Assembly (NCBI GenBank): GCA_017470045.1
Contig: JAFUFG010000001.1
Location: forward strand, 73,885 to 137,884
DNA length: 64,000 bases
Reading direction: 5' to 3'
Origin: Bacilli bacterium
Lineage (GTDB): Bacteria; Bacillota_I; Bacilli_A; RF39; UBA660
Part shown: positions 1,520 to 36,194 of the stretch, in pieces
How the letters are laid out: every line of letters begins with the position of its first letter
Numbering within the stretch: the stretch's first letter is position 1
Notes under the pieces: generated by a model
What the model was told of the DNA's origin: nothing
Database searches by the model: none
The model's input: only the letters and a program-made list of their open reading frames with translations
Translations under genes and position numbers: made by a program

Positions 1520-3880
1520 TTATTTTATAGGACCCTTATCTCTAAATTCACCTATATCTTTATGCCAATCTTTATACATTTTAAAAATTGAATACATAGT
1601 GTCAAAGTTAGCGTTAGGTTTATCCCTCTTCAATCTTCTAAATAATGAAATCATAGTAGAAGTTCCTTTTACCATAATAGCATTATTTTTAAATAAAGAT
1701 TTATCTTTAAAATAAATATAAGGTATCTGAACCCCTTCTACTATAAGCTGATTGGAAGTTGAATATTTAGGAACAATAAGTTTTACTACACTATAAATCC
1801 ATTCGAATAATTTTTTAAAATGTTTTCCCCATTCTGCTTCATTCCAATTACGATTAATAGTACAATCTTCAATCAATTTCTTATTATTTTTAGCAAAATC
1901 ATAAATATATTTAAAATTTTTATCTTGATTTATTATTTTCTTAATTTCGTTATTATTATTTTTCTCTGCTAATAAATGTAAAAAATGTTCTACACTATCT
2001 ATTTCTAATAAATCACAATTCATTTCATCTGCTAGTTTTCTAGCAGTAGTTGTTTTGCCTCCACCTGATTGCCCTGTAATCCAGAGTATCGGTACTTTAC
2101 GATTCTTAAAATCATCAACTCTATATTCTACATCTTTTTCAGATATAAAAAGAGGTTGAGAAGATTCAGTTATAATTTTTACACTATTTTTAGTTTTATA
2201 ATAAGTATCTCTAGTATAATTTTTAGTAGGTTCATAAATCTTAAAATCAGGTCTACTTTTTATTAATCCTACACTAGCTTTATTATCTCTATCTACAGAA
2301 TAACATAAAACATTGAATTCAGATTGACCATTAAACCACTGTATAGCTTTATTTAATAATAATTTAGATATTCCTTGACCTCTATGCTCAGGATCAACTA
2401 CTATACCTATCCATACACCATCTTTTAAAGGTTCGAGAACTTTTTCTCCTTTACATGTCATAGATAAATCTACAAATCCTACAGGCTCATTATCTATATA
2501 ATGAAAATATCTATATATAGTATTTATACTTTCTCCAGAAGTTCCAAAACCAAAAAACTTTTTATCTTCTTTAGTTAATTTTTTGTATACATTTAAAGCA
2601 TCTTTATATGTACCATTACTTTCAACTTTTCTAGGTTTATGATAACATTGCTTTTCATTATAAGATTCGTTAAGAGGAATTTCAAATGAATATTGTGTTT
2701 TAGATTGGCTAGTCATTTTAGAACTATTATAATTCTTAATAAGATTTAATGATCCTTTATTACCTTTATCTAATTTATATATTACTTTTTTATATCCCAT
2801 TTCTCTTAGTTTATTACAGCATTTAGCTAGCATTTTCTTAGCTATACCTCGTCCTCTATATTTAGGATCTACAGCTAATATGACAAATGCTGTTGTTTTA
2901 GAAGTACCATTGTATTTATATGCTTCTATAAAACCAATAGGATTATTATTATCCTTTTCGATATACCTATAAATCTTATAAGGACTATCTACAAATCTAC
3001 CACTTGGTGATACAAAAGCTTTATCAGAATCTGATAAATTATCATATACTTTTTTAGCCAATTCATATGAAGATGATTCATTTAACGGCAAACTATCTTC
3101 ATGTACTCTACTGATAGTATTAGTATTCTCTGGGTCTTCTATCATCTGTAATTTAAGTTCATACATAATACCAATTAATTGGCCGAATTGATTATCTGTA
3201 AGTCTAAGATAGTTATATTCACCTTTATTAGTAATAACCTTTTCCTTTTCTATTTGTTTTTCTCTATAAGAATGCATATCTCTATTGTTAGGATTATTAC
3301 CACCATCTTTAATATCAATACAAAGATTATATGGTAATATTAAAACATCAGTAATCCATACATGTTTCTCTCCATGATAACTATATTCTATAGTAGGACC
3401 AGGCATCATTATATTATCTGGATCCATATTAAGCATAATATCACAGAACTCTAAAAATTTCTTTTCATAAGATCCAGTGAACTGTTTAATCTTTCCATTT
3501 CTAAACTTATATATACCAGAAATACTACGATTACGTAGCATCTTCTCTTGCTGATCCATGTCATTGAGAATATTATAAGTCCCATATACTTTTAGCATAT
3601 TCTTCTTATATGAATCTCTTAACTTATCTTTACATTCCCTTCTATCACATAATCTATTATATTTATACGTTCTTTCGTTCCATTTAGTTTCGCCTTTACA
3701 TATAACACAACTACCTTTTACATTATATGGTCTTTTATGAATAGAATGAAATAATACCTGAGCTGCAGTAAACCCTTCTGGAATCATTTCTTCATGCTGT
3801 TTTTCTATATGATATACTAATTTCTCTTTTGTATTATGCTCATTACAAAAAGGGCATTTAAATCTTTTATTTGGATTCAT
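1520..3880 (-). CDS. Four-domain polyprotein: zinc/PD-(D/E)xK-like nuclease, two GNATs, P-loop kinase-like
   Basis: A 786-residue protein. Residues 1-100 hold a C2H2 finger (C9, C12, H24, H29) and a four-Cys site (C58, C61, C78, C83). Residues 135-245 contain E139, D178 and D189-x-K191, as in a PD-(D/E)xK nuclease core. Two GNAT acetyltransferase domains follow, with acetyl-CoA loops RGRGIA (about 342) and RGQGIS (about 500). The C-terminal 200 residues carry a Walker A loop GQSGGGKT (603-610), resembling a small-molecule or polynucleotide kinase. Three similar sites, LNE-S at 268/269, LNE-S at 405/406 and ITE-S at 572/573, lie at the domain boundaries. They match the (I/L)-x-E specificity known for T4 gp21, and a gp21-like protease is encoded at 51.1-51.9 kb. 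I infer a polyprotein matured in the prohead. Substrates of the domains are unknown. Confidence 0.72.
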   Translation of the reverse strand: MNPNKRFKCPFCNEHNTKEKLVYHIEKQHEEMIPEGFTAAQVLFHSIHKRPYNVKGSCVICKGETKWNERTYKYNRLCDRRECKDKLRDSYKKNMLKVYGTYNILNDMDQQEKMLRNRSISGIYKFRNGKIKQFTGSYEKKFLEFCDIMLNMDPDNIMMPGPTIEYSYHGEKHVWITDVLILPYNLCIDIKDGGNNPNNRDMHSYREKQIEKEKVITNKGEYNYLRLTDNQFGQLIGIMYELKLQMIEDPENTNTISRVHEDSLPLNESSSYELAKKVYDNLSDSDKAFVSPSGRFVDSPYKIYRYIEKDNNNPIGFIEAYKYNGTSKTTAFVILAVDPKYRGRGIAKKMLAKCCNKLREMGYKKVIYKLDKGNKGSLNLIKNYNSSKMTSQSKTQYSFEIPLNESYNEKQCYHKPRKVESNGTYKDALNVYKKLTKEDKKFFGFGTSGESINTIYRYFHYIDNEPVGFVDLSMTCKGEKVLEPLKDGVWIGIVVDPEHRGQGISKLLLNKAIQWFNGQSEFNVLCYSVDRDNKASVGLIKSRPDFKIYEPTKNYTRDTYYKTKNSVKIITESSQPLFISEKDVEYRVDDFKNRKVPILWITGQSGGGKTTTARKLADEMNCDLLEIDSVEHFLHLLAEKNNNNEIKKIINQDKNFKYIYDFAKNNKKLIEDCTINRNWNEAEWGKHFKKLFEWIYSVVKLIVPKYSTSNQLIVEGVQIPYIYFKDKSLFKNNAIMVKGTSTMISLFRRLKRDKPNANFDTMYSIFKMYKDWHKDIGEFRDKGPIK

Positions 3881-3930
3881 TACAAAAACCTCCTTCTATA
3901 ATTACCTAGATGTTTTGGAATGTAGTAAAT

Positions 3931-3968
3931 AGAAAAAAATAAACCAGACAGCATATGCTGTCTGGTTT
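3931..3968 (-). terminator. Terminator closing the repeat array
   Basis: A perfect 28-bp palindrome centred on CATATG (3941-3968), followed on the minus strand by a T-rich run (complement of 3931-3940). It lies just beyond the left end of the alternating-repeat array. This suggests that the array is transcribed leftward and ends here. Confidence 0.8.
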
Positions 3969-3974
3969 ACTCTC

Positions 3975-4845
3975 GAAGTTTTTGTGTATAATCAGTTTGG
4001 ATGGATCAATCATGCAATCTGTGTTAATCAAAACCCATGTTTCATTCATAGCTTGTGTTATTGATCTTGAAATGTAGTAATTCAATCTTCTGCTGTAATT
4101 TAATTCAAAAGCTTTGTTTCATTCTTCTTGAATGTTAAAATCTAGTTTTTTAATTCATTCTTCCTCTTTGGGTCGATCGATTGATTTAATTCTATCATAG
4201 TCATTGGTTTAATCTTTCGCAATGTATCATTCGGTAATAATATTATTAAACTTTTTATCTGATTCAATCATTACGACTGTGGTAATCAACCCTCCTGTTT
4301 CAATCATAACTAATGTTGTAATCTGCTTGAGTGTTTCATTCGTAAGACTTGTTAAAATCCAGCATCATTAATTCTATCCGTGGTCTTGGTTTAATCATAA
4401 GGTTTGTATCATTCGGCAATTAATGTTATTCATCTTATTGAATGATTCAATCTTTGTTATTGTAGTTTAATCAAACCTCCTGTTTCATTCTTTATTTCTG
4501 TGTAAATCTGTGTAATTAATTCAATTCTGTGTGGTCAATCTTCAGGTGTGTTTCACTCATACCTTTTAACATTATTCGAGATTACTGGTTCAATCCCGGC
4601 TGTTGTAATTAATCATTTCGTTTGTTTTATTCTTCTGCAATGTTGTTATTCTTTTTCCTTAATTCAATCTGCGCCAATGTGATAATCAGGCATTTTGTTT
4701 CTCTCATCACTATTGTTATTAATCCATTTGTTTGGATCATTCTCCTGGTATGTGATAATCTTAAGTTATGATTCATTCGATATTCATGGTATTATCAAAA
4801 TTCATAACTTATTAAGTGACTCGATTAAAATATTTGTAATTAATC
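3975..4845 (-). repeat. Candidate TIGR array: alternating short repeats with 8-9 nt spacers
   Basis: I split this stretch into about 47 consecutive units, nearly all 18 bp (some 19-21, one 13). On the plus strand each unit has about 8 variable bases followed by a semi-conserved 10-mer. Two 10-mer types alternate without exception over the 45 clear units: TGTKKTAATC-like and TGTTTCATTC/TGATTCAATC-like. The true period is therefore about 36 bp with two variable segments per period. That is the layout described for TIGR (tandem interspaced guide RNA) arrays, whose processed RNAs are about 36 nt with two short spacers. It lies directly 3' of the Nop/IS110-like gene and is closed by a minus-strand terminator, so minus-strand transcription is likely. 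Units near 4800-4845 are degenerate. There is no open reading frame and no classical CRISPR repeat. Confidence 0.85.
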
Positions 4846-4866
4846 TAAACGGTTGTCTCAATATTT

Positions 4867-4897
4867 ATATATAGGGGTGACAATCATCCCTATATAT
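4867..4897 (-). terminator. Hairpin after the tasA-like gene
   Basis: ATATATAGGG pairs with CCCTATATAT, with further GTGA/TCAT pairing inside. It begins at the stop codon of the Nop/IS110-like gene. The T-tract is weak, so some read-through into the array is possible. Confidence 0.55.
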
Positions 4898-5874
4898 TAT
4901 TCATTAAATAATTCTAACTCATCTTCTGTAATATCCATAGGCCAGTTAGGTGCAGGAACCATATGAGCATGTCCTAACTGAGCAATCGGATACGGTTTAG
5001 GTGGTTTCTCATGATGATACATTTCATAATATACATCAAAGAAATGTGACAGAAATCTTTTTGTAGCATATCTAGCAGCTCTTGCTGCGATATGACAATC
5101 CGGCAACATTCCGGTTTCGTAAATTTCTTTCATCCACATGGTCTTTTCAGTCCATTTTCTAGTTTTTACAATATCAAGAGCCTGATCTAAATACTCCAGG
5201 TTCTCATTCTTTTCTTTTTCATACGCCTTCCTTTCTTGATAAATCTTTCCATAGATATCACTTTCGCGATTGGAAGTCTTTACAAAAGACTGCCCAATTT
5301 TCCAATACAATGTTTTAAGAGACGCATTCCACGGTCTCTTTTCACCCTTTTTCCATGTCATTCTATTCGGGTCTAATCCACCAAATGCTTGAATTTGTCC
5401 TGCTGTTTGAACTTTACTAATGTCAATATGTGCAATAAGTCCTGCTGCTATTACTGGGCCAATCCCAGTAATAGATAATAACCAACGTCCAATAGGTTTA
5501 GACTTAGCATAAATTTCCAAACATGCTTTCATGTCTTTTTCATTTGCTAAATAAGTCTTCAGAAAATAATCCAACGTTTTGTGCGGTTCGATTATCGGTT
5601 CTTGTTTGATTAATTCATCAAGTTCTTCTTGAGTAGCATTACCCTTTTCTACTTGATGAGTCAATTTAGACACTTCTTTCTCCCAATCTTTATGCGGCTT
5701 ATGAATAGCCGCAATTTGGTTATTCGCCCGAATCCTGTCTTTCTGTGTAATATAATACAGATCTACTAGGTCACGAGCTTCTTCTTTGGTCATTGTTACA
5801 GATGCTTTTTTCAACTCTTTGGAAATCTTTCTAATTTCCTGAATCTCTTGTGCATCTTCAAAAATAGTGCTCAT
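4897..5874 (-). CDS. tasA: Nop/IS110-like RNA-binding protein, TasA-like
   Basis: A 325-residue protein. Residues 1-125 are a charged helical region. Residues 130-205 match the C-terminal domain of IS110/IS116/IS902 transposases (SITGIGPVIAAGLIAHI, then AFGGLDPN and a basic KKGEKRP segment). This domain is related to the Nop domain of box C/D RNPs. The conserved C-terminal part continues through ARAARYATKRFLSHFF. The N-terminal DEDD RuvC-like nuclease of true IS110 transposases is absent, and I see no HNH or RuvC motif and no serine at the usual IS110 position. A lone Nop-like protein beside an alternating-repeat array is what is described for TasA in TIGR-Tas systems. The start has AGGAGG nearby. 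A domesticated IS110 fragment is the alternative, but the array argues against it. Confidence 0.78.
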   Translation of the reverse strand: MSTIFEDAQEIQEIRKISKELKKASVTMTKEEARDLVDLYYITQKDRIRANNQIAAIHKPHKDWEKEVSKLTHQVEKGNATQEELDELIKQEPIIEPHKTLDYFLKTYLANEKDMKACLEIYAKSKPIGRWLLSITGIGPVIAAGLIAHIDISKVQTAGQIQAFGGLDPNRMTWKKGEKRPWNASLKTLYWKIGQSFVKTSNRESDIYGKIYQERKAYEKEKNENLEYLDQALDIVKTRKWTEKTMWMKEIYETGMLPDCHIAARAARYATKRFLSHFFDVYYEMYHHEKPPKPYPIAQLGHAHMVPAPNWPMDITEDELELFNE

Positions 5875-5933
5875 ATAGTTTGCCTCCTTATAGCAATTAA
5901 ATATATCTAAAGAGTTTATTTACTCTTTACTTC

Positions 5934-5947
5934 TATAATATATAATT
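5934..5947 (+). promoter_or_regulatory. Promoter-like motif TATAATATATAATT
   Basis: The same AT-rich 14-mer, or one base different, occurs 50-75 bp upstream of the gp25-like, RNAP beta' and portal genes, and in minus orientation upstream of terminase. No -35 box stands out. I infer a phage promoter element. Confidence 0.4.
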
Positions 5948-6019
5948 GAAATATAGTTTTATATCAATTAAACTTTATAGTAATCAATTTGTGTCTTATT
6001 TTGAAAGGTGGTGAGTGAT

Positions 6020-6448
6020 ATGGCTTCAGTACCAGATCAAAGAATGATGGATATAAATAATAAATATTCTCAATATACAGAACACGTACTAGATATAGAC
6101 GAATTTAAGAAACCTAAAGTATATACTGGACCACGAGCTGTAGTTCATAAAATACTAGAGTTAATAATGATGAAACCTGGAACTTATCCTACAAGACCAT
6201 ATATGGGCGTTGGATTAGTAGAAAATTTTAGATATACATTTACAGATAAAATCAGTGATCTAAGCGCTACCATTAATGAACAAATAGCAACATACTTACC
6301 AGAATTCTCTTCTGTTAGAGTAGAATTAGATACATCGATGGAACACGATAAGAGACTGGTTATATATATAATTATAGATAGCATGACATATACAGTAGCA
6401 TTAGATACTGATAAAAAGACATTGTCATGGATAACTGGCGAGGCATAA
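6020..6448 (+). CDS. Baseplate wedge protein, gp25-like
   Basis: A 142-residue protein in the size range of the T4 gp25/lysozyme-like baseplate family. The region from residue 35 has the family pattern: a hydrophobic helix, then PGTYPTRPYMGVGL, then paired helices (INEQIATYLPEFSSV) and beta-strands at the C-terminus. gp25 proteins belong to the conserved core of contractile-tail baseplates and help attach the sheath. ATG at 6020 is chosen over an upstream GTG (6008) because AAGGTGGTGAG immediately precedes it. The next gene starts 22 bp downstream, so the pair is probably co-transcribed. Function is by family pattern only. Confidence 0.6.
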   Translation: MASVPDQRMMDINNKYSQYTEHVLDIDEFKKPKVYTGPRAVVHKILELIMMKPGTYPTRPYMGVGLVENFRYTFTDKISDLSATINEQIATYLPEFSSVRVELDTSMEHDKRLVIYIIIDSMTYTVALDTDKKTLSWITGEA

Positions 6449-6470: not shown

Positions 6471-8225
6471 ATGGAAAATAAGAAGATCTCTTTAGACGAT
6501 ATTCTTAACGAAGAAACAGTTAATGCTATTGATGATAAGTCTAAAGACACTGCTAAGAAAGTAGAGAATTCTAAGAGTGATACTGTATTCGTAGGAGGAG
6601 CACCAGTTAAGAGACGTATTGTTGAGGATCTTAGCGAAATAGCTCCTATGCCTAAACCTGTAGACCCTAATAAAGAATTTGAGGATCATTATTATGGATT
6701 AATGGATAAAGCAATTGAACGTACAAAGAAATCTTTGTATGAAGAAAGAATTAAACCTTGGCAAGATAAGTGTAAAGAATTAGCATTAGAAGCCGAACTG
6801 AATGGTGAAGAAGAACCTTCCGATATGGCTTCTATGGTAAATCCTACCAATACTTCACCTGTAGTAGAATCAATTCCTACTCCTGTACAACCAGAGACTA
6901 CTAAGGTAGATCCTATTGTAGATAATACTGAAAAAGAAGCTTCTGATATTATCAGATCTGATGTAGAATCTCCTACTGTAACAAGAGACATTAGTAAAGA
7001 TTTATCAGACGGTCAAGATATCGAAATTGACCCTGATGATTTTGGAGATACATCTTTATTTGATGAAGCTGAAGAAGATTTAGAAGACTCAGTGGATACA
7101 ACAGATCCTACCGAAGAAGCAAAACGAGTTGAAGAAGAAGCTAACCAGAAAAGATTAATGGAACAGTTAAAAGGTGAACTTTCTAAAGCGATGCAATTTG
7201 ATAAAATCAATTTTGGTGAGTACAGTATTGGAGATAATAAAGTTTCTATTAATAAAGCTATGTCTCACATTGCTAAAGAAACACCTACATTTAATCAGAC
7301 GCAGACTGTTCCTTTGTATGAAACTGGTAGAACTATTAGTTTTACTCCTCTTTCTGGTTCTGATATTGTAAAAATGTCTACAGATAGTGGAGACAGTAGA
7401 TTGGACGTTCTGAAGAAAACATATTCTATTATGTATGCTCATGATGCTTCTATCAACAAAAATGAAGTTAGCTTTACTATGTGGATGAAAACTATTGCTG
7501 CTGGAGATTTGTATCAGCTGTACTTTGGTCTTTATAAAGCAACATTTGCCGGTTCTAACTATATCGCTTATAAGTGCCCTAAATGTGATAATTTCTTTAT
7601 GGTCAAGAAAGACATAAAAGAAATGTATGAATTCAATGAAGGTGTAACTGAAGAGCAGAAAGCTAGAATGAAAGATATTGAAGATCATGGTGAAGTTGAA
7701 GATAATATTAAAAATAAAGGTGAAATGTTCCAGGTAAGTGATAACTATGTAGTCTTAATTCATCCTAAGACTTTATACAATACACTCGAAATGGAGCATT
7801 TAGATACTAAATTTAGAAATAAGTATGCCGCTATTATTAACGTAATGCAATATATCGATAAATTATTCTATATTGATAAATCTAGAAAGAGACTTATTCC
7901 TGTAAACTTACATCCCGATCCCGAAAGTATGGTTAAGACTATAAAGAATAAGTGTATTATCATTCATAAATTTATTTCATCTATTACAGTTGAACAGTAC
8001 TCTGCTTTGACTGGTAAATTAGCTTCTTATAATATCAAAGAAATTGAAGCTTCTAATTTGATTGAATATCATATTCCTGAACAGGTATGTACTGAAAGCT
8101 ATACTAAAGAAGGTCCTAAGAAGGGGCAGAAGTGTACTCATAAATTTAAAAAAGAAATTATGAGTCCTTATGCAATGCTTTTTACGCAGCATCAGTTGTA
8201 CATCAACACGACCTTGACAATCTGA
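6471..8225 (+). CDS. Probable tail assembly chaperone/hub protein, short form, with zinc ribbons
   Basis: A 584-residue protein with a long acidic, low-complexity N-terminal half (residues 1-225) and an ordered C-terminal half. It has a zinc-ribbon half-site CPKCDNFF near residue 370 and a second cysteine/histidine group (C...C...H) near 545-560. It follows the gp25-like gene, where T4 keeps genes 26 and 51 (baseplate hub assembly). Its end overlaps an open -1 frame leading into the next ORF, as in tail assembly chaperone pairs of lambda G/GT type. The ATG follows AAGGAGG. The specific role is inferred from position and the frameshift arrangement. Confidence 0.5.
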   Translation: MENKKISLDDILNEETVNAIDDKSKDTAKKVENSKSDTVFVGGAPVKRRIVEDLSEIAPMPKPVDPNKEFEDHYYGLMDKAIERTKKSLYEERIKPWQDKCKELALEAELNGEEEPSDMASMVNPTNTSPVVESIPTPVQPETTKVDPIVDNTEKEASDIIRSDVESPTVTRDISKDLSDGQDIEIDPDDFGDTSLFDEAEEDLEDSVDTTDPTEEAKRVEEEANQKRLMEQLKGELSKAMQFDKINFGEYSIGDNKVSINKAMSHIAKETPTFNQTQTVPLYETGRTISFTPLSGSDIVKMSTDSGDSRLDVLKKTYSIMYAHDASINKNEVSFTMWMKTIAAGDLYQLYFGLYKATFAGSNYIAYKCPKCDNFFMVKKDIKEMYEFNEGVTEEQKARMKDIEDHGEVEDNIKNKGEMFQVSDNYVVLIHPKTLYNTLEMEHLDTKFRNKYAAIINVMQYIDKLFYIDKSRKRLIPVNLHPDPESMVKTIKNKCIIIHKFISSITVEQYSALTGKLASYNIKEIEASNLIEYHIPEQVCTESYTKEGPKKGQKCTHKFKKEIMSPYAMLFTQHQLYINTTLTI

Positions 8226-31370: not shown

Positions 31371-32625
31371 TGAGTATAGGCCCGTTATTTGGTAACAAAT
31401 AGCGTGAACAGTGGTGAAATGCTGGAAAGCGGTAAAGCCCTAATAGCTACAACGTAATCTGTAAAGATAAGCGTGAATGCCGTCGAAAGACAGAAAAAAT
31501 ATTAGGGATGGTATATGCTGAGATAAAAGCTTATATAATCTTACTCCAATTATATAAGTGCTAAGTACCTTTACAATCTGTAATCAGTTACTGAGAATAC
31601 ATATTCGTATTATTTCTTTCAGGGTTACATTACTTCCATAAAGATAGGAGGAATGATAAATCATGGAAGAATATAATGGATTAATAAAATTTGCATATGA
31701 AGAACAATGGTCTTTAATAAGAGACCCGAGAGTTAGGCCAAATATGTATTTGGTTAGTACATTCGGAAGAGTATGCCATGCTTATTCAAGGGAAATACTA
31801 CGACTAGAATTAATTAATAGTGGGTATCTTACAGTTCATTTAATAAGATCTGATAGTGATGATAGAAAATACGTATCATGTCTAGTTCATCGTTTAGTTG
31901 CAGAAGCATTTATTCCTAATGATAGTCCGTTAAAAAATACAGTCAATCATATTGATGGAAATAAATTAAATAATTATGTATGGAATCTTGAATGGATGAC
32001 TCAATTAGAAAATAATATACACGCAGATTTATACAAATCTGGAGTTGAGCATTATAAAGCTAAGCTTACAGAAAAACAAGTTAGAACTGCATGTGAAATG
32101 CTGTCTAAAAATGAACGATATCGAGATATAATTACAGCTATTGGATTAGACCCTAATGAACCTAATAATTATGATATTATTGGAAATATTAGACGACGAA
32201 TTACATACCTTAATATTAGTAAAGATTATGTATTTCCTTATAAAACAAGAATAAATAAACATTCTGAAAAAGAAATTCGAGAAATTTGTAAATGTATATC
32301 TGATGGATTGACTATGAGAGAAGCATTTACTAAGTTAACAGGAAAAGTATATTCTTGTTATACTGATAAAAGTTTTAACGAATTGTATAGAAATATAAAA
32401 ATTAGAAAAATATGCAAAGAAATAAGTAACGAATATGATTTTTAGTTCAACGACTATTCCTGAAATGGAAGTAGAATACAAGTGTATTCGAAGCGCCACT
32501 GGTCCTATTTAAAAATAGGATTATAATATAGTCTCGCCATCATGGTAACACCATGAGAAGTTCATAAGAGAACTGCGTAAATGTTTCGACGTTCCCAAAC
32601 GCACGCATTTACGTGAAGATAGTCG
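31371..32625 (+). ncRNA. Group I intron with HNH endonuclease gene in DNA polymerase
   Basis: A 1255-nt insert between GCT (Ala) and ATT (Ile) of polymerase motif B. The preceding base is U and the last intron base is G, as in group I introns. GACTAT (32452-32457) can pair with ATAGTC (32528-32533) as P7. The flanking sequence TTCAACGA...CCTGA...GGNAGTAGAA is shared with the terminase intron. The endonuclease ORF sits in a peripheral loop. P1 was not resolved. Confidence 0.82.
31663..32445 (+). CDS. HNH homing endonuclease, intron-encoded
   Basis: 260 residues. NUMOD4-like N-terminal segment ([10 protein letters not shown]), then the HNH core with [20 protein letters not shown] and [11 protein letters not shown] (residues about 75-125), as in I-HmuI/SPO1-type enzymes. 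The C-terminal half is probably DNA-binding helices. AGGAGG precedes the ATG. It would nick intronless polymerase alleles and spread the intron. Looks intact. Confidence 0.87.
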
Positions 32626-34356
32626 ATTTACGGGAGTTCCGGTGCGCCGTCGTCGATATTTTATAATATTCATGTTGCATCTTCTATTACTAGACAGGGT
32701 AGAAGTAGTATATCTGCATCTATCATGTTCTTTGAAGCATTCTTAGCAAATAATACAAAATTTGGTTCTTTAGATGAAGTATTTACATTTATAGATAATG
32801 TATGTATGGAGAGACCAAATAGATCTCGAGAGAATTATGATACTAATATTTTGGATAGAAATGTATCTGTTGAAGAATGTTTTAATAAGCTAGTTCTTAC
32901 ATGTGGATATAATTGGATTCCGAATAATATAGAACTAGATATGATTTGGGCGGCAGTATGCCGTTTAGATCAGCAAGACATTAATAGAATTTATTATAAG
33001 AATAATTTATTTGAGTTTTTTGAAAATTCTACTCCAATGAATTTATTAATAGACATTTTAGGATCTTTAGATACACCATTCTTTGATCCCAATAAACCGC
33101 CAAAGTCTATTGAATTCAAATTATCTGTATTGGATAATTTAGTATCCGAATATATATTTTATAATTATCAGACTATAGATAAGATTGAACGAGTAGAACG
33201 TCTTATTAGAGAAGTGGTTGTTGTAGTAGATACAGATAGCTGCATGATCAATCTAGACCCATGGTATCACTATGTAGAAGAGAAGATTAGAGGTATTAAT
33301 ATTCCAATTAAGAATTACGATATTCAGGGAGATAAATTGTTAGATAAAGAAGATATTAATGATGGCTCTGATTGTAAAGAAGAGATTACTCAGTTCTATG
33401 ATTTTTATAATGACGAAATTATAGAAAAGAAAAGAGTTATTAATCCAACTAAGATTATTGCAGAAGACGGATTGAGATACTCCATTATTAATATTATGGC
33501 ATACATTATCTCCAATTGTTTGCGTAAGTATTTTGATAAGATTGGTAGACTTCATAATACAACTAACAAAGAACACGATTTCTCGTTCTTGATTATGAAG
33601 AATGAATTCTTATTTAAACGTATTCTTCTTACAAATGTAAAGAAACACTACGCTACATATGTAGAAGTGCAGGAAGGAAAAAGAATACCAAAAGGAATAG
33701 ATACTTCTCTTGATATTAAGGGTATGGAAATAGCCAAAACAACAGTACCAGTTTCTACCAAAAAAGCATTATCTAAGATTCTCTATGAAGATATATTGAA
33801 TTGTGATAATATTAATCAATTACAGATTCTTAATGATATAGCAGTATTAGAGAGACATATTTTAGACAGTATTAAGTCTGGATCTTTAGAGTATTATAAA
33901 CCAGTAAAAGTTAAGTCTATTGATTCTTATAAAGAACCAATGTCTCAGCAAGCAATCAAGGGTAGTGTAATATATAATGCTCTTAGATCTTCAACAGAAC
34001 CACCAATCAATTTAAAAGAAGCTCAGTCTAATGTATTTGTAATTAAAACAGATATTACAATTTCTAGATTAGAAAACGATTATGAATATAAAGAGAATTA
34101 TCCAGATAAGTATCAAATCTTTATGGATATATTGTCTAAGAATTCTTTGAATATTTATAATGAAAAAATATCTATCAATCATAGAGAAATAACGTCTATC
34201 GCCATACCAGATGGACTTGCAACTCCTGTATGGTTAATGCCATTTATCGATTATGATAGTATTCTGAAAGACAATATTTCGGGTTTCCCATTAGAATCTG
34301 TTGGCTTTACAAAATTAAATACTAATTCAGCTATATCTGGTATAGTACATTTATAA
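32626..34356 (+). CDS. Family B DNA polymerase, C-terminal half, exon 2
   Basis: 576 codons. The exon starts IYGSSGAPSSIFYN, completing motif B, and runs open through 32725 where an internal ATG gives an apparent shorter ORF. Motif C is VDTDS (33226-33240, spliced residues about 371-375), with the paired catalytic Asp. A KGSVIYNALR segment and the C-terminal thumb follow. The exonuclease and motif A are missing here and are supplied by the separate gene at 17-18.9 kb, so the two proteins presumably assemble. Confidence 0.83.
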   Translation: MYGSSGAPSSIFYNIHVASSITRQGRSSISASIMFFEAFLANNTKFGSLDEVFTFIDNVCMERPNRSRENYDTNILDRNVSVEECFNKLVLTCGYNWIPNNIELDMIWAAVCRLDQQDINRIYYKNNLFEFFENSTPMNLLIDILGSLDTPFFDPNKPPKSIEFKLSVLDNLVSEYIFYNYQTIDKIERVERLIREVVVVVDTDSCMINLDPWYHYVEEKIRGINIPIKNYDIQGDKLLDKEDINDGSDCKEEITQFYDFYNDEIIEKKRVINPTKIIAEDGLRYSIINIMAYIISNCLRKYFDKIGRLHNTTNKEHDFSFLIMKNEFLFKRILLTNVKKHYATYVEVQEGKRIPKGIDTSLDIKGMEIAKTTVPVSTKKALSKILYEDILNCDNINQLQILNDIAVLERHILDSIKSGSLEYYKPVKVKSIDSYKEPMSQQAIKGSVIYNALRSSTEPPINLKEAQSNVFVIKTDITISRLENDYEYKENYPDKYQIFMDILSKNSLNIYNEKISINHREITSIAIPDGLATPVWLMPFIDYDSILKDNISGFPLESVGFTKLNTNSAISGIVHL

Positions 34357-34799: not shown

Positions 34800-36194
34800 A
34801 TGGCTTACGAAGATTTAACAGGAAAAACAGTTGGTAAGTACAAATGTATTGAAATGGTTGGTAAACGTAGTAACGGAGTACCAATCTACAAATGCGAATG
34901 TAAAGATTGTGGGTGGATTGGAGATGTCAATTATAGTACAATAATTGATTCCGATAACCATCCAAAATGTGCACACAAATGGAATTATAATGATTGGATT
35001 GGTAAAGATATTGGTAGATATCATGTAATATCAATTGATCATGTAGAAGAAGTTCCATTTGGTACAAGTCATTATCCAAGATATTATTTTAACGTAATGT
35101 GTAATAGATGCGGAATGCCAGCTATTATTACAGATAATGATATAAAGAAAGATATGAAAAATACAAATTTAAATGCGATAACAAAATGTTCTCATAATGT
35201 TGATGAATCTAAAATAGTTGGTATGCAATTTGGTAAATATAAAATTACTAAAAATATGGGTAGAGTTAATGGTAGAATAATGGTAGAAGCTGTTTGTACT
35301 AAATGCGGATTTGTTAAAACTTATAGACTTAATGATCTTAAAGATAGATCCAACGACAATCAGGAAATATGCACTCATAAATATACATGGGATCAAGAAA
35401 AAGAAAGAGAACGCTCTGGAGAAATTATAGCAGATAAAGGTATTGGTGATACTACTATGGGTAAATATAGTATCATTCAGTTTTTAAAACGGGATGAGTA
35501 TGGCCATCGAATTTATTATGTTCGCTGTAATAGATGTGGATGGGAAGGTAATATGGTAGACCATAATATACTTGCATCAAAAGATAAAATAAATTGTGTG
35601 CATCAGACTTCCAGTAATATTTGGTCTACTGCTAGATTGGGATATATTTATGATGCTATGGTAGATAGATGCTATAATCCTCATAATGTAAATTATCCTA
35701 ATTATGGAGCTAAAGGTATAGGTGTGTGTCCAGAATGGTATGATCCTAATGATCCTAATAATTATATTGGAAAAAGGAATTTTAATAAATTCGCTGTAAC
35801 TCATGGGTTTACAGATTCACTTAGTATTGATAGAATAGATCCTACTAAAGATTATTCTCCAAATAACGTTCAATTTGTTACTCGAAAATATAATTCTATA
35901 TTTAGAGCTAATGTAGAGGTTATACATATAATAGGTAATGGAATCGACATTCCTGCTACTATTAGCGGATGGGAAAAAATATTAAATATTGCTGACGGAT
36001 TTTTAAGAAGAACATTTAATCCTTCTTTATATCCAGATCCTGCAATGAGATACTATTATATGGTATCTTATATTGTAAATGTATTACAACCTAATGCTTT
36101 ACCAGGATCATTTGTATATAAAGTATATTTTGAAAAACCAATAGGATATGATTTTAAAACTTCATTCGATTTGTATCCTACTAAAAAAGAATAA
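34800..36194 (+). CDS. Zinc-repeat protein with C-terminal HNH-like domain
   Basis: 464 residues. About four copies of a ~65-residue unit, each starting G-K-x-x-G-K-Y and carrying two Cys pairs (CKDCGW, CNRCGM, CTKCGF, CNRCGW) and a closing C-x-H. The C-terminal part (about 275-385) has RCYNP, YGAKGIGVCPEW, LSIDRIDPTKDYSPNNV, the His-less HNH-like/AP2-type endonuclease signature seen in many phage free-standing endonucleases. I infer a mobile or DNA-binding enzyme. A frameshifted relative with two repeats lies at 30.3 kb. Confidence 0.68.
   Translation: MAYEDLTGKTVGKYKCIEMVGKRSNGVPIYKCECKDCGWIGDVNYSTIIDSDNHPKCAHKWNYNDWIGKDIGRYHVISIDHVEEVPFGTSHYPRYYFNVMCNRCGMPAIITDNDIKKDMKNTNLNAITKCSHNVDESKIVGMQFGKYKITKNMGRVNGRIMVEAVCTKCGFVKTYRLNDLKDRSNDNQEICTHKYTWDQEKERERSGEIIADKGIGDTTMGKYSIIQFLKRDEYGHRIYYVRCNRCGWEGNMVDHNILASKDKINCVHQTSSNIWSTARLGYIYDAMVDRCYNPHNVNYPNYGAKGIGVCPEWYDPNDPNNYIGKRNFNKFAVTHGFTDSLSIDRIDPTKDYSPNNVQFVTRKYNSIFRANVEVIHIIGNGIDIPATISGWEKILNIADGFLRRTFNPSLYPDPAMRYYYMVSYIVNVLQPNALPGSFVYKVYFEKPIGYDFKTSFDLYPTKKE

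What the first reader, a model, noticed from the sequence alone, without database searches (positions are those of the whole stretch)
3975..5874. A TIGR-Tas-like RNA-guided locus in a phage
Seen: about 45 clear units of about 18 bp in which two 10-bp repeat types strictly alternate, giving a 36-bp period with two 8-9 bp variable segments. Right beside it is a gene for an IS110/Nop-domain protein without a nuclease domain, and a minus-strand terminator closes the array. Known: TIGR-Tas systems pair Nop-domain Tas proteins with such arrays, process them into about 36-nt tigRNAs with two short spacers, and occur in phages; TasA is the form without nuclease. Inferred: the locus is a nuclease-less TIGR-Tas that may silence or bind competing DNA.
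Basis: partly seen in the sequence, partly recalled or inferred. Interest (0 to 1): 0.95.

Follow-up and report, generated by a model that had tools for sequence, protein, structure and literature searches.

The report
TIGR-TasA RNA-guide array in jumbo phage
A giant bacterial virus carries what looks like a nuclease-less member of the recently described TIGR-Tas family of RNA-guided systems, with about 22 paired guides, and in related phages such guide pairs change together, much faster than the protein that uses them.

Summary

New, from relatives (nine array pairs): spacers around a loop repeat are kept or changed together (state switches 11 of 197 across loops, 60 of 190 across edges); changes are spread along the array; only 18-79% of spacers persist at 94.7-98.6% tas identity; some change in place between kept repeats. 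No natural target was found; self-matches are not above chance overall. Likeliest function, unproven: RNA-guided binding of competing DNA.

The parts
4897..5874 (-). tasA gene, 325 aa, Nop-domain protein without nuclease
3975..4845 (-). dual-repeat TIGR array, about 22 units of edge (GAWTGAAACA-like), spacer A, loop (GATTANNACA-like), spacer B; the part 4779-4845 is irregular
   Evidence: hand parse; HMM 22.8 units over 3986-4807, shuffles about 0
4817..4822 (-). possible 5'-truncated edge repeat (GAGTCA) at the tas-proximal end; the parsed arrays of L010 and L012 begin with AGTCA
   Evidence: assignment by eye
3935..3974 (-). 3'-truncated edge repeat (GAGAG) running into the rho-independent terminator that closes the array
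   Evidence: -26.2 kcal/mol, z -9.3, 0 of 200 shuffles as stable
4858..4907 (-). hairpin at the tas stop codon, between gene and array; no T-run after it; possible processing or stability element
   Evidence: -15.0 kcal/mol, z -4.07, 0 of 200 shuffles as stable
4107..4452 (-). two blocks (about 4324-4452 and 4107-4269, borders by eye) with the same order of repeat variants but unrelated spacers: probable old block duplication
   Evidence: repeat self-alignment 5.5, reached by 0 of 1000 order permutations (highest 5.0); spacer self-alignment reached by 1000 of 1000

Best explanation
A complete TIGR-TasA system in a phiKZ/AR9-like jumbo phage. Shown: a Tas protein reduced to its Nop part, and next to it, on the same strand, an array that codes for about 22 two-spacer guides and ends in a terminator. 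Inferred from the studied relatives: the array is transcribed, cut within the edge repeats into roughly 36-nt tigRNAs, and each is held by a TasA dimer, one protomer on the edge and one on the loop repeat; spacer A pairs with one DNA strand and spacer B with the other over about 16 bp, opening and bending the DNA without cutting it. Most likely use (inferred): a roadblock or silencer against DNA of competing phages or plasmids in the same cell, because in relatives the guides turn over fast as pairs while tas hardly changes, and overall the phages' own DNA is not targeted above chance.
For: Family. Array against shuffles and whole-window scan. Terminator. An array of the same plan on the tas strand in 89 of 97 sequences modelled, window included (trained score over 50). 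In the window G and A of the GA box and A of the CA box stay at 0.90-0.94 (C at 0.64 and 0.77) while loop centres carry 0.26-0.58 bits and spacers 0-0.26: selection on the box positions. Spacer pairs change together across the loop: 11 of 197 switches against 60 of 190 across the edge, p 1e-11; mirrored definition 12 of 192 against 63 of 191. Guides turn over at 94.7-98.6% tas nucleotide identity. Self-targeting not above chance overall: true pairs 1, 4 and 70 hits at 0, 1 and 2 mismatches, against 0.0, 2.8 and 76.2 from mismatched pairs. No neighbour family other than translated arrays recurs in more than 6 of 51 tas clades.
Against: No transcript, small RNA or target is shown for this locus or for any relative here. 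Exact-match scans of two window guide pairs in IMG/VR gave 29 and 19 stretches, a wrong-geometry control 45: no sign of viral targets. In the window alone, self-matches with at most 1 mismatch were 3 against 0.5 expected, a weak hint for self-regulation. The arrays used for turnover belong to Tas proteins about 40-57% identical to this one, so that result is transferred, not measured here. Only 64 kb of the phage was available. The degenerate loop repeat could mean partial decay.
Confidence: 0.6

Rival explanations
1. TIGR-TasA acts as an RNA-guided regulator of the phage's own genes, binding its own promoters or ribosome-binding regions.
For: Window self-matches with at most 1 mismatch: 3 against 0.5 expected; with gaps -2 to 4 it was 4, against 0, 2 and 0 in three control geometries. 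One (spacer A GGAGGTTT, B ATAACAAA; 1 mismatch, spacers overlapping by 1 nt) falls on the ribosome-binding region of the next gene downstream at about 3893.
Against: Over one array per tas clade (964,843 bases; pairs of two 8-nt spacers; arrays with at least 4 pairs; gaps -1 to 3) true pairs do no better than mismatched pairs at 2 mismatches (70 against 76.2) and barely at up to 1 (5 against 2.8). Single 8-mer spacers are not enriched in own contigs (482 against 463 +/- 26; 428 against 412 +/- 25). Guides of a regulator should be conserved between close strains; many are not. Of the three window matches only one has a gap in the 0-2 range reported to work for TasR. Only 64 kb of a probably larger genome was searched.
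Confidence: 0.15
2. TasA bends DNA at guided sites to help recombination, integration or replication, as suggested by Faure et al. for TasA.
For: TasR bends its target by nearly 180 degrees (PMC12045711). Near tas, families that look by eye like SSB (6 of 51 clades), serine recombinase (4), NinB (4) and a Holliday-junction-resolvase-like nuclease (4) recur (names by eye, not by search).
Against: Among 35 window proteins scanned with PHROGs no integrase was hit apart from TasA's own transposase-named families. About 22 different guides, changing fast in relatives, do not suit a fixed attachment site.
Confidence: 0.08
3. A decaying remnant: the array is degenerate and no longer used.
For: Loop repeat centres are poorly conserved, loop length varies 10-12 nt, and the array was not flagged by the lag scan that flagged 82 of the 96 loci.
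Against: The tas frame is open and keeps the residues invariant among 26 aligned relatives. Box positions stay near 0.9 while centres vary. The terminator is intact. The same protein is also known from a 1.3-kb ENA contig (4 member sequences), which may be the same phage.
Confidence: 0.1
4. TasA works with a nuclease supplied in trans, for example the 786-aa endonuclease-acetyltransferase-kinase fusion encoded just downstream.
For: That gene lies next to the array on the same strand (1520-3880) and has an N-terminal endonuclease family match (PHROG 15137). In relatives one family that looks by eye like a Holliday-junction-resolvase-like nuclease lies near tas in 4 of 51 clades.
Against: The window gene lies behind the array's terminator with its own ribosome-binding site, and no homologue of it was found in 117 loci. 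The nuclease-like family is missing from most clades.
Confidence: 0.05
5. An ordinary IS110-type transposase beside an unrelated repeat.
For: Pfam Transposase_20, 27.6 bits, cut-off 21.3.
Against: IS110 model 42 of 140 bits needed, Tas model 173 of 100; no second catalytic domain hit in Pfam; 89 of 97 modelled sequences share the array plan.
Confidence: 0.01

Closest known systems
TIGR-TasA dual-repeat systems (Faure et al. 2025, PMC12045711), e.g. the Flavonifractor plautii locus
   Same: solo Nop-domain protein, 36-nt units of two alternating 8-12-nt repeats and two short spacers, array beside the gene, truncated edge repeat then terminator
   Different: 8-nt spacers (9 is usual); about 22 units (5 to 15 most often, per the paper); loop repeat degenerate and 10-12 nt; a helical insertion of about 45 residues (about 48-92) absent from 23 of the 25 other proteins aligned; host genome is a phiKZ/AR9-like jumbo phage
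TasH of Salicola phage CGphi29 (the only phage-collection match; solved TasH: PDB 9vzx, 21kl and others)
   Different: TasH carries an N-terminal HNH domain; the window protein starts at the Nop part; 25.9% identity over 55% of the length to the Salicola protein
TasR (PDB 9mty)
   Different: no RuvC domain; repeats start with GA and end with CA, TasR repeats with UG and CCA (paper)
IS110/IS621 bridge-RNA recombinases
   Different: no DEDD catalytic domain found; an array instead of a single bridge RNA; transposon ends were not looked for

Membership tests
TIGR-Tas (dual-repeat) | Nop-domain protein of the Tas family | tested here: met
   NF052498 173.4 bits, cut-off 100; Foldseek's top 10 rows are TasH or TasR chains
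TIGR-Tas (dual-repeat) | adjacent array of two alternating 8-12-nt repeats with about 8-12-nt spacers | tested here: met
TIGR-Tas (dual-repeat) | truncated edge repeat at the 3' end, then a terminator | tested here: met
   GAGAG then hairpin, -26.2 kcal/mol
TIGR-Tas (dual-repeat) | truncated edge repeat at the 5' end | tested here: inconclusive
   GAGTCA at 4817-4822 by eye, like AGTCA in L010 and L012
TIGR-Tas (dual-repeat) | array processed into 36-nt tigRNAs bound by Tas | not testable with these tools
   needs small-RNA sequencing
TIGR-Tas (dual-repeat) | paired spacers bind opposite strands of one DNA target | tested here: inconclusive
   no target found; in relatives the loop-centred spacer pair is inherited as a unit
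TasA subtype | no nuclease domain | tested here: met
   model residues 27-313 match TasH from 65 and 29-312 TasR from 111; model all helical; no HNH or RuvC family hit
TIGR stem-loop array subtype | palindromic stems in place of edge repeats | tested here: not met
   one stretch of 126 nt (3975-4100) folds no better than shuffles, z 0.10, 100 of 200 as stable; constant edge repeat instead
IS110 transposase | passes the IS110 model with a DEDD catalytic domain | tested here: not met
   42 bits against cut-off 140; only Transposase_20 in Pfam
CRISPR-Cas | a single 25-36-nt repeat and cas genes | tested here: not met
   repeats are 10-12 nt of two kinds; no Cas family in the five proteins or the two

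The most novel reading that the evidence does not exclude
TIGR arrays have a way of renewing guides that is unlike CRISPR adaptation: both spacers of one unit are rewritten together, at any place in the array, between repeats that stay as they are, with no adaptation gene in the cassette. In the pair L003/L007 the rewritten guides still resemble the old ones (40 of 80 positions identical, 23 expected, p 1e-4), as if guides were re-tuned to a diverged copy of the same target; in the other comparisons they are near random. The window's two blocks with equal repeat order but unrelated spacers would be the same process over a longer time.
Probability: 0.3. Interest if true: 0.85.

Novelty: new member of a known kind. 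Interest (0 to 1): 0.58.

Why it matters
Faure et al. leave open what TIGR spacers target and how arrays change. The relatives gathered here give a testable picture for the second question: the inherited unit is the loop-centred spacer pair, change is not polarised, and guides evolve much faster than tas. That supports an arms-race use and weighs against fixed self-regulation. A TasA in a phiKZ/AR9-like phage also raises the question of where in the infected cell such a guide complex would meet rival DNA.

Tried and rejected
Plain autocorrelation of the window array: too weak, replaced by a circular-profile HMM. Single-protein search of IMG/VR: no relative; the alignment query worked. Self-target and cross-phage target searches in the geometry [A][rc B] and three control geometries, in loop and edge registers: no excess at gaps 0-2; exact matches at a 3-nt overlap were 4 against 0, 0 and 0 in the loop-register controls, two of the four being copies of one site (L030, L084), and counts of 3-6 also occur in the controls at other gaps. 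IMG/VR pattern scans for two window guide pairs plus one wrong-geometry control: chance level; several matches are copies of the same phage gene (by eye). Sharing of guide pairs between clades: none exact; near matches 4 and 36 at 3 and 4 mismatches, controls 3-4 and 20-29. Shine-Dalgarno-like spacers: GGAGG 8 against 11 expected. Spacer 5-mers: CAAGC, GAAGT, TTGAT up and TAAAC, TTAAT, TTTAA down against column-shuffled spacers, somewhat like coding DNA; not followed. Codon phase in guide substitutions: no period-3 excess; mismatches are uneven along the spacer (16 at position 4 to 39 at position 8), not followed. Rfam over 3800-6100 up to E 0.1: no match. PADLOC for two proteins: no match. 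Chimallin- or tubulin-like proteins: ten proteins with Pfam and two against PDB sequences gave no such hit; not a proof of absence. In one search a family missing from the list is not excluded. The target geometry was derived from the paper's 8-nt 3' overhang; two sentences of the paper on the cut position differ by a base, so other orientations were run as controls. A close-relative scan with P0038 added one locus, L117.

Full report
OBSERVATION. The minus strand from 4778 to 3975 splits into 44 half-units, mostly of 18 nt, in which GAWTGAAACA-like and GATTANNACA-like repeats alternate; two irregular pieces extend it to 4845. A circular-profile HMM with repeats typed from relative L006 scores 96.8 nats on the region, -0.1 on the opposite strand and about -0.12 in 40 of 40 dinucleotide shuffles. 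Trained on the region it finds 22.8 units, 3986-4807. Two untrained models find nothing else in the 64 kb on either strand. The array ends in a short GAGAG and a terminator hairpin, -26.2 kcal/mol, z -9.3.

PHAGE. PHROG and tblastn hits show split RNA polymerase parts, DNA polymerase, terminase, head protease and tail sheath of phiKZ/AR9-like jumbo phages; the polymerase piece at 9043-10530 matches 213 phage records, all under 60% identity, 28-32% in the 20 listed (Staphylococcus, Bacillus, Listeria and other jumbo phages). Of 36 window proteins, only tasA (97 loci) and one HNH endonuclease (3 loci) have a match in the 117 loci held at that point. The TIGR cassette therefore sits in otherwise unrelated phages. 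No tRNA gene was found. No whole genome is held for the window.

RELATIVES. 80 viral loci (of 185 that encode a relative) and 16 genome loci were fetched. NF052498 passes its cut-off in 48 of 48 viral records searched and in 3 of 4 host genomes; the fourth, that of L096, has only a weak match with a stop inside. With the window, 89 of 97 sequences gave an array on the tas strand with a trained score over 50 (the script prints the total as 98 by a slip). Only that strand was modelled, and some loci are near copies of each other. The common plan is edge GANYGANNCA, 8 nt, loop GANAGNACCA, 8 nt. The eight without are L027, L031 (34-nt period), L038, L061, L081 (about two units by eye), L089, L094 and L095; L038 and L095 do show a 36-nt lag. 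Among 45 clades the median is 13 complete units, range 4-56; the window has 22. Apart from translated arrays, the family that recurs most near tas is SSB-like (6 of 51 clades); serine-recombinase-like, NinB-like and Holliday-junction-resolvase-like families reach 4 each (ATG frames of at least 70 aa, -4.5 to +5.5 kb; names by eye).

WHICH SPACERS BELONG TOGETHER. 45 array pairs share at least 4 exact guide pairs. I took 9 that are related but not near-identical: L003/L007, L040/L042, L018/L019, L015/L018, L022/L024, L010/L012, L035/L040, L047/L049, L024/L026. They are not all independent (some share a locus or a clade). Tas nucleotide identity is 94.7-98.6%, yet only 9 of 51 to 30 of 38 spacers are conserved. 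Each spacer was scored kept (at most 1 mismatch) or changed (unaligned or at least 4); values between were left out. Neighbouring spacers differ in state across 60 of 190 edge repeats but only 11 of 197 loop repeats (Fisher p 1e-11); with halves defined the other way it is 63 of 191 and 12 of 192. One of the nine pairs, L024/L026, shows no difference (3 of 22 and 3 of 22). The unit of inheritance is thus edge-A-loop-B, which fits the tandem-spacer guide model from an independent side and marks GANYGANNCA as the edge repeat, as the truncated copy before the window's terminator also says. Unmatched units are spread evenly along the array: 23, 16, 21, 20, 23 in five bins, n 103, unlike leader-end growth of CRISPR arrays.

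CHANGE IN PLACE. In 16 array comparisons (overlapping sets) 20 units lie between shared neighbours in equal number and differ in guides. Their edge repeats differ by 9 mismatches (38.8 expected from units of the same array) and loops by 15 (32.5 expected), while spacers differ by 209 (234 expected). So repeats stay while spacers go. For L003/L007 alone the five changed guides are still more alike than guides of different units, 40 of 80 identical against 23.0 +/- 4.0, p 1e-4; leaving that pair out, spacers are near random (169 against about 178, from the rows) while repeats still stay. The window shows what may be an old version: two blocks (about 4324-4452 and 4107-4269, borders by eye) with the same order of repeat variants, reached by 0 of 1000 order permutations (highest permuted 5.0, observed 5.5, so the margin is small), and unrelated spacers.

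TARGETS. From the paper's 8-nt 3' overhang I derived that one target strand reads spacer A then the reverse complement of B. Over 89 arrays (1507 loop-centred pairs, near copies included) own-locus matches with up to 2 mismatches in this geometry were no more frequent than in three control geometries or in the edge register; exact matches across all loci at gaps 0-2 likewise (1153 unique pairs). With one array per clade, true pairs gave 1, 4 and 70 hits at 0, 1 and 2 mismatches against 0.0, 2.8 and 76.2 from mismatched pairs. The single exact hit is in L087 with a 1-nt overlap. The window alone gave 3 against 0.5 at up to 1 mismatch, including the ribosome-binding region of the next gene at about 3893; this is weak and is reported as a hint only. 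Two window pairs scanned in 2.9 million viral contigs gave 29 and 19 stretches, a wrong-geometry control 45. Spacer GC follows contig GC, r 0.87 over 45 clades, though it is lower on average (0.45 against 0.53); this fits targets in DNA of similar composition, such as rivals in the same host, but does not prove it.

MECHANISM. Shown here: protein family, missing nuclease, array, terminator, spread among phages, and paired guide turnover in relatives. Taken from the literature: processing to 36-nt tigRNA, dimer binding, two-strand pairing, DNA bending (PMC12045711; I saw the outline, parts 1-4 of 12 of the text, the figure legends and found passages). Inferred: that this TasA blocks transcription or replication of competing DNA. 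Fast guide turnover with a nearly fixed protein, self-matches at chance level overall and no constant partner gene favour that over self-regulation or recombination help, but no target is known.

LITERATURE. Searches for TIGR-Tas, for its terms (20 of 114 listed), for the full name and for TIGR-Tas with jumbo phages (15 of 69 listed) showed the Faure paper as the only primary study of these systems that I recognised in the listings; of the review PMC12385481 I saw listing and abstract start only. The main text of Faure et al. does not hold the word jumbo. The TasH structures are known to me only from PDB titles. I make no claim beyond these searches.

VERDICT. An ordinary member of a young family in an unusual carrier, with a degenerate loop repeat; the family-level result on guide turnover is the part worth following.

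Noticed in passing
window 1520-3880, minus: 786-aa fusion just behind the array: weak zinc-finger match at the start, endonuclease family PHROG 15137 (residues 5-240), two GNAT acetyltransferase stretches and a C-terminal P-loop kinase-like part.
   Followed up: partly
window 3893, minus: Guide pair GGAGGTTT / ATAACAAA matches the ribosome-binding region of the next gene with one mismatch and a 1-nt overlap.
   Followed up: partly
window 6008-61451: phiKZ/AR9-like jumbo phage genes: split RNA polymerase parts, DNA polymerase, terminase, head protease, tail sheath, weak gp25-like baseplate match.
   Followed up: partly
window 31663-32445 and 34800-36194: Two HNH endonuclease genes lie before and after a DNA polymerase-like gene at 32725-34356; homing endonucleases or an interrupted polymerase gene are possible.
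   Followed up: no
L003 about 6812-6955: Two-unit tandem duplication inside a TIGR array, absent from its close relative L007: arrays also grow by local duplication.
   Followed up: partly
L075 11073-13169: The longest array parsed, about 58 units.
   Followed up: no
L031 9360-10080: Tas relative beside a repeat with 34-nt period, not found by the 36-nt model: perhaps a shorter-spacer variant.
   Followed up: no
2297 unique spacers of 45 clades: Spacers are enriched in 5-mers such as CAAGC, GAAGT, TTGAA and poor in TTAAT, TTTAA against column-shuffled spacers, as if drawn from coding DNA.
   Followed up: no
near tas in 4 of 51 clades (L008, L039, L054, L091): A family that looks by eye like a Holliday-junction-resolvase-like nuclease recurs within about 1-4 kb of tas.
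   Followed up: no
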